In this document: positions 8,560 through 61,938 of the stretch, in pieces
Layout of the letters: every line of letters begins with the position of its first letter
Numbering within the stretch: the first letter of the stretch is position 1
Assembly (NCBI RefSeq): GCF_001458175.1
Contig: NZ_CYPW01000001.1
Location: 62,001-126,000 of the forward strand
Reading direction: 5' to 3'
Source: Shimia marina
GTDB taxonomy: Bacteria > Pseudomonadota > Alphaproteobacteria > Rhodobacterales > Rhodobacteraceae
Length of the DNA: 64,000 bases
The notes under the pieces: model-generated
Told to the model about the DNA's origin: nothing
Database searches by the model: none
The model's input: the letters and a program-made list of their open reading frames with translations, nothing else
Position numbers and translations under genes: made by a program

Positions 8560-9315
8560 ATGACTGAGACATCCCTCACCTACCCCGGCGGTTTCGCCTA
8601 TATGATGGAGCGCTACGAAGGCCGGCGCGATCCGTTTGACTTTGGGCCTGAAGACCTGCCTGCAGTGGACGTCAATCTGGGAGTGCTGCGGGAGGCGATT
8701 GTGCCGGAACGCGCCGCACAGAAAGGCCCGGCGGATCCCAATACAAGCTGGGTCCGCAAACGGCGCCAGATTGCGGAGGAGTTTGTCGGCCTTAGCGAGC
8801 TGGCCTTTTTGAATGCGCAGCTGATTTCCAACCTGCGCAAGCGCGCCTATCCGGCGCAGGCTCCGGCGCTGTTTCGCCGGATCTGGGCGGAAGAGGCCGA
8901 TCACCTGTTGGGCACACTCAATCTGCGCTGGCTGGTGAGCTCGGTGCAGACTTTTGCCGATCATGGGGAAACCGCCGCACAGCGGGAGGCCGGACAGGGG
9001 CTGCGCATGCTGTTTGGCATGATGAAGCTTTATGAATTTGAGCGCAGTTTTGGTGGGCTGGACCCCAGCAAGGAGCATGGGTTTGGCAAACGTGTCAAAA
9101 CTCGTCTGCCGCTGGATATGGAGCCGTTTTCACTGCTACATGGCGGGCTGGATATCAATGTGATCGCCCCCGTGTGGGAGCTGTCGCAAAAAGACCCGGT
9201 GATTGCGCCCTTGGCGGAGCATCTTTTGCAGGAGTTGATTGCAGAGCGCGGTGGCGTGTTTCGACGGCTGGCGCAGATGCGCGCCAAGAAGGCACGGCAG
9301 CAGGCGCGCAAATGA
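8560..9315 (+). CDS. Conserved-looking hypothetical protein coupled to a glycosyltransferase
   Basis: I do not recognise this 251-residue protein. It is soluble (no signal peptide or membrane segment) and mostly helical by composition, with a very basic tail (RAKKARQQARK). One segment, FRRIWAEEADHLLGTL, has an acidic pair next to His, reminiscent of metal or ferritin-like helices, but that is speculation. Its stop overlaps the start of the following glycosyltransferase in an ATGA, so the two are probably translationally coupled and may act on the same surface or cytoplasmic glycan. No good Shine-Dalgarno precedes ATG 8560; the hairpin at 8527-8547 sits there instead. Confidence 0.75.
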   Translation: MTETSLTYPGGFAYMMERYEGRRDPFDFGPEDLPAVDVNLGVLREAIVPERAAQKGPADPNTSWVRKRRQIAEEFVGLSELAFLNAQLISNLRKRAYPAQAPALFRRIWAEEADHLLGTLNLRWLVSSVQTFADHGETAAQREAGQGLRMLFGMMKLYEFERSFGGLDPSKEHGFGKRVKTRLPLDMEPFSLLHGGLDINVIAPVWELSQKDPVIAPLAEHLLQELIAERGGVFRRLAQMRAKKARQQARK

Positions 9316-10280
9316 CCAGACCCGCAGCCAGCTGGGGCGTGGTGGCCACCATCAAAGCCCCCGCGCAGGAGATCCTCAATTTTGCGGCCCATCATCTGGA
9401 GCTGGGCGCGCAGCATATCTGGATTTATCTGGATGCCCCCAACCCGGAGGTGAAGCCCTTTCTGAAGGCGCATCCACAGGTCACACCGGTGAGCACCGGC
9501 GAAAACTATTGGATCAAGGCGCGCGGGAAGACACCGCCGATGCATCAGGTGCGTCAGTCTTTCAACGCCCGACATGCCTATCAACGGGCGCAGCATGTGG
9601 ACTGGCTGCTGCATTGTGATGTGGATGAATTCCTCTTCTCCGAGCGCGCGATTGGCGATCAGCTTGCCGCGCTGCCTGCGACCTGTTTGAGCGCCCGCGT
9701 GCGCCCGGCAGAAGCCTTGAGCAACCCCGATGGCAGCGCCGATCCGCTGTATTTCAAATCCTTCATCGAAGACAAAGCCGCGCGGCGGCGGATTGTGGCA
9801 GAGGTGTACCCCACCTTTGCGCCCTATCTTAAAAACGGCTTTGTCAGCCATGTGGCCGGAAAGATGTTTGTGCGCACCGGACAAGAGGACATGCGGCTGA
9901 AGATTCACAATGTCTTTCAGGGGGAGCAGCAAAACCCCGGTCAGCAGGCGCTGACGGACATGACACTCCTGCATGTGCACACCGCCGGTTGGGCCCATTG
10001 GGAACAGAGCTTTGTCTATCGCCATGCCAAAGGCTCTTATCGCGATGAACTGGGCGCGGCACAGGCGGAGGGCAAGGGTGGGCTTAATCTGCACAAGCTT
10101 TTTGCCCATCTGGCACAGGAGCCCGATGGGCTGCGCGATTTTTATGAGGCGGTCTGTGTGGCGCATCCAATGTTGCTGGAAAAACTGGCCGCGCATGGTG
10201 TTTTGCAAGAGCACCGGCTGGCTTTGGCGGTAAAACGGCGGAAACACTTCGCAGATTTTGAGCCAAGTGTTTCCCAGTAA
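9312..10280 (+). CDS. Glycosyltransferase family 2-like protein (Glyco_tranf_2_4 type)
   Basis: The 322-residue product begins with a GT-A nucleotide-binding fold (WGVVATIKAPAQEILNFAAH, then HIWIYLDAP). It has the metal and sugar-nucleotide binding motif in HCDVDEFLF, where DVD is the DxD. This is the layout of the soluble Glyco_tranf_2_4 group common in roseobacters. A late His/Trp-rich stretch (LLHVHTAGWAHWEQSF) is typical of that group. Acceptor and donor are unknown. I set the start at ATG 9312, which overlaps the upstream stop; the frame is open further upstream, but only as a shadow of the preceding gene. Confidence 0.85.
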   Translation: MTRPAASWGVVATIKAPAQEILNFAAHHLELGAQHIWIYLDAPNPEVKPFLKAHPQVTPVSTGENYWIKARGKTPPMHQVRQSFNARHAYQRAQHVDWLLHCDVDEFLFSERAIGDQLAALPATCLSARVRPAEALSNPDGSADPLYFKSFIEDKAARRRIVAEVYPTFAPYLKNGFVSHVAGKMFVRTGQEDMRLKIHNVFQGEQQNPGQQALTDMTLLHVHTAGWAHWEQSFVYRHAKGSYRDELGAAQAEGKGGLNLHKLFAHLAQEPDGLRDFYEAVCVAHPMLLEKLAAHGVLQEHRLALAVKRRKHFADFEPSVSQ

Positions 10281-53639: not shown

Positions 53640-54350
53640 ATGAGCAGTAACCCAAAAATCGAAGATGATCTGCGTGAAAAGATCATCTCTGCGCCCGATG
53701 TGATTCTCGAAGACCGCGATCTGATGCGCGCGCTGATTGCAGAAAATGAAAAAACCATGGGCGGCAATATTGTCGATCTGCGCGGCATTGCGATGGAACG
53801 TCTCGAAGCGCGGCTTGATCGTCTGGAAGACACCCACCGCAGTGTCATTGCCGCCGCATATGACAATCTGGCTGGCACAAATCAGGTGCATCGGGCGATT
53901 CTGCGGATGCTGGATCCGGTTGAGTTTGAGCGCTTCCTGCATGATCTGGGCGGCGAAGTTGCCGATATTTTACGCGTAGATGCCATCCGGCTTGTGCTTG
54001 AAACGGAACAAGAGACCGATGGCGACCACGCCTTGGCGCGTTTGGGCGATGTTTTGTCCACAGCCGCGCCGGGCTTTATCGAAGACTATCTGACCGGTGG
54101 ACGCAATATACCACAGCGTCAGGTCACGTTGCGCCAAGTGCAAAGGGGCCGCGCGCTGGTCTATGGAGAGGATGCGGACTGGATCCGCTCTGAAGCCTGT
54201 CTCAAGCTGGATTTCGGTGCGGGCAAACTGCCCGGTCTTCTGGTGATGGGAGCGGAAGATCCACATCAGTTCACACCGCAACAAGGCACTGATCTTCTGG
54301 CCTTTTTTGCCGGTGTCTTTGAGCGCGCGATGCGCCGCTGGCTGGCGTGA
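53640..54350 (+). CDS. DUF484 family protein
   Basis: This 236-residue protein begins with a helical segment (DLREKIISAPDVILEDRDLM) followed by DLRGIAMERLEARLDRLED, a coiled-coil-like linker. Then comes a GAF-like domain (VEFERFLHDLGGEVADILRV...RLVLETEQETDGDH, LPGLLVMGAEDPHQFTPQQG). That layout matches DUF484, which is often encoded just upstream of xerC. Its biochemical role is unclear in the literature I know. ATG 53640 is chosen because homology starts there. Its stop overlaps the GTG start of xerC by 4 bases. Confidence 0.85.
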   Translation: MSSNPKIEDDLREKIISAPDVILEDRDLMRALIAENEKTMGGNIVDLRGIAMERLEARLDRLEDTHRSVIAAAYDNLAGTNQVHRAILRMLDPVEFERFLHDLGGEVADILRVDAIRLVLETEQETDGDHALARLGDVLSTAAPGFIEDYLTGGRNIPQRQVTLRQVQRGRALVYGEDADWIRSEACLKLDFGAGKLPGLLVMGAEDPHQFTPQQGTDLLAFFAGVFERAMRRWLA

Positions 54351-55261
54351 TCAGCCCGGCCGCGCAGGAGGCTCTGGAGCGCTTTCTGGCGCATAAGGTG
54401 GCGCTGGAAAATGTTTCAGATAACACCGTGGCGGCCTATCGGCGCGATGTGTCTGATTTCATTACGTTTATGACAATGCACAGGGGAGAGCCGCAAGGGC
54501 TGGCCCCGCTGAAAGACATTGACGTTCCGGATATGCGCAGCTGGATGGCGCAGGCCAGAAGCAGCGGTATTGCGCCTCGGTCTTTGGCGCGTAAGCTCTC
54601 GGCAGTAAAGAGTTTTTACCGCTGGCTGGCAGAACGCGAGGGCTTTGAACCAACGGCGGTGCTGGCCATGCGAGCGCCGAAATTTCAGGCCAAGCTGCCA
54701 CGTCCGTTGGCGGAAGATGCCGCGCTGCAAGTGCTTGAAACTGTTGAACTTCAATCACAGGAAGACTGGGTCGGGGCGCGCGATGTCGCCGTGATCACCC
54801 TGCTGTATGGTTGCGGATTGCGGATTTCAGAAGCCCTTGATTTAAAAGGCAAAGACGTCCCCCTTCCTGAAACCCTGCGGATTGTTGGTAAAGGCGGTAA
54901 GGAACGGCTTGTGCCCGTGTTGGATGCGGCGCGCGCGGCGATGGAACACTATATTTCCCTTTCACCTCATATGGTTACAGAAGATGGCGCCGTATTTCGT
55001 GGCGTAAGAGGTGGCCCATTGAGTGCGCGCGTGGTGCAGAAAACCATGCAGCAGACACGGCAACAGCTGGGGTTGCCCGCAAGCGCGACACCACATGCAC
55101 TGCGCCACAGCTTTGCAACGCATTTGTTGAGTGCTGGCGGGGACTTGCGAGCTATTCAGGAGCTTTTGGGCCATGCCTCTCTGTCCACGACACAGGCCTA
55201 CACGCAGGTGGATACGGCCCGTTTGATGGAAGTCTACAACCGCACCCACCCCAAAGCGTGA
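54347..55261 (+). CDS. xerC: Tyrosine recombinase XerC
   Basis: XerC acts with XerD at dif to resolve chromosome dimers. The 304-residue protein has an N-terminal SAM-like core-binding domain (ERFLAHKVALENVSDNTVAA). Its catalytic domain carries the expected residues: Arg in GCGLRISEALDLKG, Lys in VGKGGKERLVPV, His/Arg in TPHALRHSFATHLL, His in LLGHASLSTTQAYTQVD, and the nucleophilic Tyr in that last stretch. The start is GTG 54347, overlapping the DUF484 stop. No cognate att sites or cargo are next to it, so this is the housekeeping recombinase, not a mobile-element integrase. Confidence 0.93.
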   Translation: MISPAAQEALERFLAHKVALENVSDNTVAAYRRDVSDFITFMTMHRGEPQGLAPLKDIDVPDMRSWMAQARSSGIAPRSLARKLSAVKSFYRWLAEREGFEPTAVLAMRAPKFQAKLPRPLAEDAALQVLETVELQSQEDWVGARDVAVITLLYGCGLRISEALDLKGKDVPLPETLRIVGKGGKERLVPVLDAARAAMEHYISLSPHMVTEDGAVFRGVRGGPLSARVVQKTMQQTRQQLGLPASATPHALRHSFATHLLSAGGDLRAIQELLGHASLSTTQAYTQVDTARLMEVYNRTHPKA

Positions 55262-60087: not shown

Positions 60088-60372
60088 TCAGCCGCAGCAG
60101 CTACAGGAGGAGCTGTGCGCAATGGGCTGCACTGGCTCCAAGTTACCCTCGCCCAGTGGCAGCTCCCCGGTGAGTGCAGGCGCTGGGATCTGCAGCACAG
60201 TGGCGATGCGGATCAAAGTGGCTTCTGGCAGCGTCGCGCTTGCGGAAGCGGTTTCCAGCTTGGTCAGTTGCCGCTCTGTCAGGCCCACGAGCTTGGCGAG
60301 CTTCGGCCGACCGATTTTACGTGCCTTGCGCACAGTGTTGAGACGCTGGGGATCAATCGTAAGCGCAGTCAT
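60088..60372 (-). CDS. XRE family HTH protein with a C-terminal Cys cluster
   Basis: The 94-residue protein has an XRE-type HTH (RPKLAKLVGLTERQLTKLE, then ATLPEATLIRIATVLQIP) typical of small transcription factors or antitoxins. The last seven residues are SSCSCCG, a tight cysteine cluster that could bind a metal or act as a redox or thiol switch. I set the start at ATG 60372, preceded by AAGGGC. There is no obvious toxin gene; a very small membrane-protein gene lies about 110 bases upstream on the same strand. Confidence 0.7.
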   Translation of the reverse strand: MTALTIDPQRLNTVRKARKIGRPKLAKLVGLTERQLTKLETASASATLPEATLIRIATVLQIPAPALTGELPLGEGNLEPVQPIAHSSSCSCCG

Positions 60373-60479
60373 AACAGGGCCCTTGAGTACAGTTTTCGGG
60401 ACCATTGCATAGGCTGCAGGCGGGCTGCTGCCAAGCAGGAAAAGACTTTGCTCTTTGTCCTGCTGCCGATGGCACGGCC

Positions 60480-60617
60480 TTATGGCGCAGGCAGCTCAAA
60501 TGGCACGGTATAGAGCACCAGCAACGCCAGAGTGACGGCAAGTGTCATGAGCATGATCACCACACACAGATCGCGGCACCAGGCGTTGTGTTTTAAAAAG
60601 GATCGAATGGCTTTCAT
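60480..60617 (-). CDS. Small single-pass membrane protein, 45 residues
   Basis: A 45-codon reading frame starts at ATG 60617, with GAGG 5 bases upstream, and encodes a basic N-terminus (MKAIRSFLKHNAWCRDL) followed by one hydrophobic helix (about residues 18-38: VVIMLMTLAVTLALLVLYTV) and a short polar tail. The translation was made by hand from the sequence. Small membrane proteins of this type are often toxins or accessory subunits. Upstream of an XRE regulator on the same strand, a toxin-antitoxin relation is possible but not shown. Confidence 0.5.
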   Translation of the reverse strand: MKAIRSFLKHNAWCRDLCVVIMLMTLAVTLALLVLYTVPFELPAP

Positions 60618-60856
60618 CGCACCTCACAGCAAGTTGGCTGAGAGACAGATAGGCATGGCGCAGGACGGCTTCTTTAGAAAGTCGGACAGTTGTTGTGGAA
60701 GAAACGCCAAAGCGCGGAGCAGAGACCCGCTAATAAAGTAGGACAGAAAGGGTGCATGGAGGGGCACAAACAGCGGCATTTAAAGGCACCGCCCTTGCAC
60801 CTTTATATTGCATGCAATTACTTAAAATCAATCAAAGGCGATAAAGAGACTTGCTC

Positions 60857-61843
60857 ATGCACAAGGCATATGTTGGATTTTCTGCACCAGTTGGATACGA
60901 CTACGAGTATCCAGCTGAAAAAACGGCTCAGGATACGCGCAGTTCACCGAATCCTATTTTGGTTGGCGTTACAGGTCTTCTCATTCTGTTTGATGAAATC
61001 TGGTTCCCATGTCGCAGTATTTGTCCTCAGTCAATGCGGAGCCTTGATTACGTCAAATTCGTCAACGAAGAATTTGACAGCCTTCACCTAGATGACAAAC
61101 AGGTGGCCCCCCTTCTGGAGGAAATGCCGCAACATATACCTCTTAAGGAGCTGCACCCTGAGGGGTATTCACGCTTTATGGAGCTTCACTACGGGTCAGG
61201 ACGTCCTGACAATCATACGCACGCCCTTTCGGTCTTTGGGGCTACGTTGGGCGGCGACCCAAGTCCGCGCAATCTCATCCGTGATATGCTGCTGCTGGAT
61301 ATGATTTCAGAAGATTTGACTCCAGTATTTAATGGTCTCACTCGTAAGATTCCCTATCCAGACGAATTCCTATGGCAAAAGAGAGATGATGAGGATCACT
61401 CCCTGCGTATCGCCGACCGGGCGCTGACCATTGCCGGACTATATGATCTGACCGGACATGCCGGCCCATATCACCCGGTGTTTGAAGAGCTTCGTGAACA
61501 TGAGTTCATCCAGTCTTTCCGGAAATGGATTCGTGGCGAAGCCTCTTCGCTGCACAACAGATCGATAGACGATGTGGTGGCTGAGATCGAGGAAACGACA
61601 ACTGAGTTTGGCCACCGTGCGCGCCGCACATCAATTGGCAAAGATGGTCTAAAGGATGTGACCGTAACATTTACAAAAGACCTTGTATTGAGTGCCATCC
61701 CTGGTGCCTCGGCTGTTGAAAAAGCCCTAGGGATATCGAAGCAACGCAGGCAGGCAGAGAAACACAAGATGAACACGTTTGTGGCTGAAGGTCAGGCAGC
61801 TCTGTGGAGAGAGAAAGTCTCAGTTACCCCATATTTTGACTGA
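60857..61843 (+). CDS. Orphan hypothetical protein, 328 residues, A/T-richer
   Basis: I do not recognise this protein. It is soluble, with a short hydrophobic stretch near residues 32-48 (VGVTGLLILFDEIWFPCRS), then mixed alpha/beta sequence and a basic C-terminal third (EKALGISKQRRQAEKHKMNT). There is no known motif. The gene looks more A/T-rich than its neighbours and is flanked by unrelated genes, which suggests recent acquisition. I chose ATG 60857 (MHKAYVGFSAPVGYDYEY); a TTG at 60851 is upstream in frame. It ends at a strong terminator. Possible roles include defence, but nothing in the sequence supports one in particular. Confidence 0.7.
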   Translation: MHKAYVGFSAPVGYDYEYPAEKTAQDTRSSPNPILVGVTGLLILFDEIWFPCRSICPQSMRSLDYVKFVNEEFDSLHLDDKQVAPLLEEMPQHIPLKELHPEGYSRFMELHYGSGRPDNHTHALSVFGATLGGDPSPRNLIRDMLLLDMISEDLTPVFNGLTRKIPYPDEFLWQKRDDEDHSLRIADRALTIAGLYDLTGHAGPYHPVFEELREHEFIQSFRKWIRGEASSLHNRSIDDVVAEIEETTTEFGHRARRTSIGKDGLKDVTVTFTKDLVLSAIPGASAVEKALGISKQRRQAEKHKMNTFVAEGQAALWREKVSVTPYFD

Positions 61844-61898
61844 TCATGTGCCTCAACCTTCCGTTTTGGGACAGATCTATCTTTTTTGGCTCACTACG

Positions 61899-61938
61899 CA
61901 CAAAGCCGCCCAGTATCTGGGCGGCTTTGTGTTGTTTT
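61899..61938 (+). terminator. Rho-independent terminator after the orphan gene
   Basis: CACAAAGCCGCCCAG (61899-61913), a TAT loop and CTGGGCGGCTTTGTG (61917-61931) form a perfect 15-bp stem followed by TTGTTTT. The convergent icd gene ends 32 bases further on, so it could act for both directions. Confidence 0.88.

What the first reader, a model, noticed from the sequence alone, without database searches (positions are those of the whole stretch)
60857..61843. A/T-richer orphan gene with its own terminator
The 328-residue protein has no known domain, looks different in base use from neighbouring genes and is bracketed by unrelated genes. It follows a 240-base gap with A/T-rich sequence. Such single orphans are often newly acquired and can be defence or stress genes.
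Basis: partly seen in the sequence, partly recalled or inferred. Interest (0 to 1): 0.5.

Follow-up and report, generated by a model that had tools for sequence, protein, structure and literature searches.

The report
Recently acquired orphan gene beside idh
A real but very rare bacterial gene of unknown biochemistry, which looks acquired by lateral transfer into a spot where related species carry other genes; one distant copy lies near an anti-virus system, so a defence role is plausible but unproven.

Summary
The 328-residue gene (60857-61843, +) is real. Its G+C (0.497), third-position G+C and codon fit are the lowest of 50 long ORFs in the window. No Pfam, NCBIfam, PADLOC, PHROG or PDB entry matches it better than chance. 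None was found in 24 other same-genus genomes. In the genus, the site between Lrp/XRE genes and idh holds different cargo in different species, so lateral acquisition into a variable spot is the best account. The terminator is not the gene's own: relatives that lack the gene have a hairpin behind idh. In Devosia the homologue lies 239 bp past a tRNA-Gly and about 1 kb from CBASS type II genes; the other three copies have no clear defence neighbour among the genes seen. Best reading (about 0.4): an accessory soluble effector in host-versus-mobile-element conflict. PIN-nuclease, XRE toxin-antitoxin and CBASS-component readings were tested and not supported. AlphaFold models were too poor to use (pLDDT 34 and 37).

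The parts
60857..61843 (+). orphan gene, 328 aa, about 37 kDa, pI 5.5, no strongly hydrophobic membrane-like stretch (highest 19-residue mean 1.8)
   Evidence: ORF list; aligns from its first Met with three homologues; third codon positions diverge most (identity 0.33 against 0.61 and 0.72) between it and the G252 copy
60618..60856 (.). A/T-richer upstream gap, GC 0.494, last 77 bases 0.39; presumed promoter region (no sigma-70 consensus match on the + strand)
60480..60617 (-). 45-codon ORF for a small hydrophobic protein; weak homologues (29-35% over 42-46 residues) in five of 19 same-genus loci; probable left border of the acquired segment
   Evidence: translation and tblastn
60088..60405 (-). 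XRE-type HTH gene, present in 5 of 19 same-genus loci without the orphan, so unlikely to be its partner
61898..61932 (+). hairpin terminator, read as shared with convergent idh; probable right border of the acquired segment
61971..63998 (-). monomeric NADP isocitrate dehydrogenase (idh), conserved right flank, runs off the window
   Evidence: Pfam IDH 1038 bits, TIGR00178 973 bits over its cut-off

Best explanation
A single accessory gene acquired laterally into a variable spot between the Lrp/XRE/small-hydrophobic-protein genes and idh. It encodes a protein of about 37 kDa from a very rare family that spans alphaproteobacteria and a haloarchaeon. Shown: anomalous composition, patchy distribution, protein-level conservation, and 49 residues invariant in four copies, among them D15, D46-E47, D118-N119-H120, D143, D153, N159, R213 and R222. 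Inferred: the protein is soluble; the N-terminal half, which carries most invariant residues, is a catalytic (perhaps metal-dependent) domain; the C-terminal half is helical; and the protein acts as a stand-alone effector in conflict with phages or other mobile DNA, with ties to the host loose enough for it to come and go as one gene.
For: Lowest GC, GC3 and codon fit of 50 window ORFs. Each homologue also has lower GC than the rest of its locus: 0.554 against 0.633, 0.464 against 0.639, 0.556 against 0.616. 0 of 24 same-genus and 0 of 35 same-family genomes have it; a wider family sample adds only G252 (1 of 393 others); class 0 of 384 others, phylum 0 of 397 others, Devosia's order 0 of 296 others. 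The same spot carries different genes in relatives, for example an AAA_16 ATPase in G012. In Devosia the gene starts 239 bp after a tRNA-Gly and about 1 kb from genes that match CBASS models for JAB, E1-E2, cyclase and phospholipase effector. 35 of the 49 invariant columns lie in residues 1-164.
Against: Defence genes near only 1 of 4 copies. Of 19 flank proteins scanned with PADLOC around the other three (seven window, nine G252, three Halorussus), the only matches were HTH proteins (window XRE gene to RmrA, E 5.9e-8; Lrp and a Halorussus HTH protein to Csa3/CARF-type models at about 1e-5) and one double-cassette ABC ATPase in G252 (mads_3, E 3.8e-50), which I read as a housekeeping ABC-F protein (recalled). 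PADLOC has no model for the gene itself. No relative in phages or viral contigs. No usable model, so no fold assigned. No catalytic motif is recognised; the enzyme reading rests on conservation alone, in only four sequences.
Confidence: 0.4

Rival explanations
1. Laterally acquired gene with an ordinary metabolic, stress or signalling role unrelated to phages.
For: 3 of 4 copies have no clear defence neighbour among the genes seen; other cargo at the same spot in relatives includes a glyoxalase and a methyltransferase (G014, both over Pfam's cut-off) and a protein with a sub-threshold SnoaL match (G007).
Against: By reading the gene lists I saw no neighbour shared by two copies, so no pathway travels with it (not tested by all-against-all comparison). 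Rarity and single-gene mobility fit conflict genes better. Devosia copy near CBASS genes.
Confidence: 0.33
2. Selfish or leftover cargo of a mobile element (plasmid, island) that serves the element or nothing in the host.
For: One copy on a Halorussus plasmid, about 9 kb from a TnpB-family gene; one directly behind a tRNA gene.
Against: Beside the window copy I saw no transposase or phage integrase; the nearest recombinase-like ORF is one I read as housekeeping XerC (54347-55261, name recalled), kept in 9 of 19 same-genus loci without the orphan. No match in phages or viral contigs, and only the one plasmid record. Four intact frames conserved at protein level.
Confidence: 0.17
3. Toxin of a toxin-antitoxin pair with the upstream XRE gene as antitoxin.
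For: XRE HTH gene about 450 bp upstream on the other strand.
Against: XRE gene in 5 of 19 same-genus loci without the orphan. I saw no HTH gene directly beside the Devosia or G252 copy in lists of ORFs of at least 90 and 100 aa, which would miss smaller ones; in Halorussus the listed HTH gene is beyond MmgE/PrpD.
Confidence: 0.04
4. PIN-like nuclease (spaced conserved acids, then a helix and a D-L-T-P-V-x-N stretch, resemble the end of a PIN domain).
For: Resemblance by eye only (recalled).
Against: No Pfam PIN match at E up to 1 in 4 of 4 members; profile-profile comparison with 20 PIN proteins gives probability 0.1%, though a profile of four sequences (Neff 2.2) has little power.
Confidence: 0.05
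5. Old vertical gene lost nearly everywhere.
For: Present in two genera of one family.
Against: Different genomic sites and lower GC than the rest of the locus in each host; none in 24 of 24 other genus members.
Confidence: 0.01

Closest known systems
CBASS type II genes (patatin-like effector) of the Devosia MAG (L003)
   Same: A homologue of the gene lies in the same tRNA-Gly-adjacent stretch, about 1 kb from these genes
   Different: The gene itself matches no CBASS model; I saw no CBASS genes near its other three copies; it is on the opposite strand to them
Single-gene anti-phage effectors in variable chromosomal spots (general kind; recalled)
   Same: One gene, aberrant composition, sporadic distribution, spot with exchangeable cargo
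   Different: No recognised effector or nuclease domain; no phenotype known
Uncharacterised Halorussus plasmid protein WP_158059364.1
   Same: Homologue over 94% of the query, E 1e-12, 28% identical in the four-row alignment
   Different: Archaeal host, plasmid, gaps in the C-terminal half; annotated only as hypothetical protein

Membership tests
Laterally acquired orphan gene | Composition unlike host genes | tested here: met
   Lowest of 50 window ORFs for GC, GC3 and codon fit; the whole genome was not available as a file
Laterally acquired orphan gene | Absent from close relatives, whose same site is empty or differently filled | tested here: met
   0 of 24 other genus genomes; no homologue in 19 of 19 idh flanks examined, of which 9 keep the PALP-side neighbours and 7 of these also Lrp, with other cargo or short spacers
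Laterally acquired orphan gene | Homologues in distant lineages | tested here: met
   Devosia, another genus of the family, Halorussus
Anti-phage defence gene | Matches a known defence model | tested here: not met
   PADLOC: only DrmE at E 0.044 for the window copy, none for the other three at E up to 1
Anti-phage defence gene | Repeated association with defence genes | tested here: inconclusive
   1 of 4 copies near CBASS genes; around the other three only HTH and one ABC-ATPase match among 19 flank proteins
Anti-phage defence gene | Protects cells from phage | not testable with these tools
   needs a bench test
PIN nuclease | PIN profile match | tested here: not met
   (low power, four sequences)
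CBASS component | Encoded in the cyclase operon and recognised as effector or accessory | tested here: not met
   Opposite strand to the operon in Devosia, no PADLOC match; no CBASS genes seen near the other copies
Type II toxin-antitoxin pair with XRE antitoxin | Partner gene conserved beside it | tested here: not met
   XRE gene in 5 of 19 loci without the orphan; no HTH gene seen directly beside the Devosia and G252 copies

The most novel reading that the evidence does not exclude
A new, undescribed single-gene defence family with its own fold, shared by alphaproteobacteria and haloarchaea, that moves as one gene into variable spots such as the one beside idh or behind tRNA-Gly next to CBASS.
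Probability: 0.25. Interest if true: 0.6.

Novelty: new member of a known kind. Interest (0 to 1): 0.3.

Why it matters
If it is a defence gene it would be an unnamed family that curated libraries miss because it is so rare (four copies found here), and the idh-side spot would be a place to look for other unknown accessory genes in this genus. As it stands it is a documented lateral acquisition without a known function.

Tried and rejected
Hit in G067 (E 0.001): lies in a 316-aa ORF that I read as an alpha/beta hydrolase (recalled; not scanned), and the profile does not recover it; dropped as chance. AlphaFold2 with two sequences: whole protein pLDDT 34, first 176 residues pLDDT 37; not used, so no fold search was run. 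PIN reading: not supported. XRE antitoxin partner: not supported. Direct repeat of the Devosia tRNA-Gly as an island end: no exact repeat of 12 bases or more in the 15.2 kb held. PDB by sequence and by profile: only one match each, E 1.8 and 1.9, taken as chance. Three paper searches (40, 31 and 33 papers; 8, 10 and 8 listed) were seen as listings with the start of abstracts only; no paper was opened, and I saw nothing in them about this gene. An earlier count said the Devosia gene is about 500 bp from the CBASS genes; the right figure is about 1 kb (9002 to 10043). A DNA search with the G252 copy in 21 family genomes found only itself.

Full report
Observation. The ORF 60857-61843 (+) encodes 328 residues. 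Over 50 non-overlapping window ORFs of at least 140 aa, its GC (0.497), GC3 (0.489) and codon log-likelihood (-0.079) are each the lowest. The eight 987-bp windows (0.6%) that are as A/T-rich all overlap this place. The gap before it is 239 bases with GC 0.494, a value reached by 2.8% of such windows. The 50 ORFs were chosen by length, so a few may be spurious frames.

Terminator. The hairpin at 61898-61932 is strong, though the consensus scan alone does not find more sites than in shuffles (1 against 1.7). I fetched 19 idh flanks out of 23 other genus genomes with a long idh match; none of the 19 has the gene. In 14 of 19 the 90 bases behind idh fold into an unbroken stem of 6 or more pairs, and 10 of 19 share the AAGCCGCCC...GGGCGGCTT core; in the other five I see only imperfect repeats. 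The hairpin is best read as idh's, serving both convergent genes.

It is a protein gene. Three homologues were found and all align from the first Met: Devosia MAG L003:8001-9002 (42% in the four-row alignment), G252 L033:9653-10639 (49%) and the Halorussus halophilus plasmid NZ_CP044524 (28%). Between the window and G252 copies, identity at codon positions 1, 2 and 3 is 0.61, 0.72 and 0.33, and 100 of 154 sites with the same residue (Met and Trp left out) use different codons. This points to purifying selection on protein. 49 columns are invariant in the four, 35 of them in residues 1-164: GxSxPxxYDY at the start, PNP, DExWF, CPxxM, DNH (118-120), D143, D153, N159; later GPY (203-205), R213, FR (221-222), PGA (282-284).

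Distribution. 0 of 24 same-genus, 0 of 35 same-family and one chance hit in 40 other class genomes (the chance hit is discussed under). With profiles: 1 of 393 other family genomes, which is G252; 0 of 384 others of the class; 0 of 397 others of the phylum; 0 of 296 others of Devosia's order. These samples overlap, are draws from larger groups, and in many genomes not every first-look candidate was scored. A scan of genome contigs (84,980 species genomes, as the tool states) with six 8-residue peptides gave 30 candidate stretches and one relative, Devosia; it reaches close relatives only. Plasmids gave one record, also with the Devosia and Halorussus queries; phages none; viral contigs none of 14 and none of 35 candidates. 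Archaeal genomes as a group were not searched.

Site. In G012 (idh 97% identical) Lrp and XRE are kept, and a 414-aa AAA_16 ATPase takes the place of the orphan. Of the 19 flanks, 9 keep the PALP gene and 7 of these also Lrp; in these the interval to idh ranges from about 150 bp (G002) and 610 bp (G024, from PALP) to about 2.7 kb (G019, from Lrp), with different contents: glyoxalase plus methyltransferase in G014, a protein with a sub-threshold SnoaL match in G007 and a like one in G010, ORFs without family in G011 (ten gap proteins were scanned, not all gap ORFs). The other 10 flanks lack PALP and Lrp within the 8-9 kb fetched and say only that the gene is not beside idh there. The XRE gene is found without the orphan in 5 of 19. 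A 45-codon ORF (60480-60617, -) has weak homologues in five of 19, so the acquired part is probably within 60618 to about 61897 (inference).

Context elsewhere. In Devosia the gene begins 239 bp after tRNA-Gly. About 1 kb beyond it, on the other strand and after a 206-aa ORF without a family, lie JAB, E1-E2, a DncV-like cyclase and a patatin phospholipase, the four gene kinds of CBASS type II by PADLOC and Pfam models. In G252 and Halorussus the gene stands among genes I read as ordinary. PADLOC scans of nine G252, three Halorussus and seven window flank proteins gave only HTH matches (best: window XRE gene to RmrA, E 5.9e-8) and one ABC-type ATPase in G252 that matches mads_3 at E 3.8e-50; I take this for a housekeeping ABC-F protein (recalled), but it is a result against a flat 'no defence neighbour'. 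All four copies have lower GC than the rest of their locus or window.

Mechanism. No domain is found. PIN was tested because the conserved acids recalled it, and was not supported. AlphaFold2 failed, presumably for lack of relatives. The most hydrophobic 19-residue stretch averages 1.8 or less in the four copies, so I take the protein to be soluble. I commit, at 0.4, to an accessory effector in conflict with mobile DNA. The enzymatic nature is inferred from invariant D, E, N, H and R residues, and the defence role from mobility, rarity and the single CBASS neighbourhood. An unrelated acquired function is nearly as likely (0.33).

Verdict. The acquisition is solid and the function is open. Interest 0.3.

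Noticed in passing
L003:9413-10033 (-): 206-aa ORF between the Devosia homologue and the CBASS genes, no Pfam or PADLOC match, with an R-C-G-L-I-H stretch like the RxxxxH motif of HEPN RNases (motif recalled); possible CBASS accessory.
   Followed up: partly
window 60480-60617 (-): 45-codon ORF for a small hydrophobic protein with weak homologues, in some loci two of them, in five of 19 same-genus idh flanks.
   Followed up: partly
L034:6664-7908 (-): 414-aa AAA_16 ATPase at the corresponding spot in same-genus genome G012 (PADLOC mad8 at E 1.9e-4).
   Followed up: partly
L031 (G004): A second, broken piece of an idh-like gene (69% over 61 residues, two stop codons) about 1.2 kb past the end of the intact idh.
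   Followed up: no
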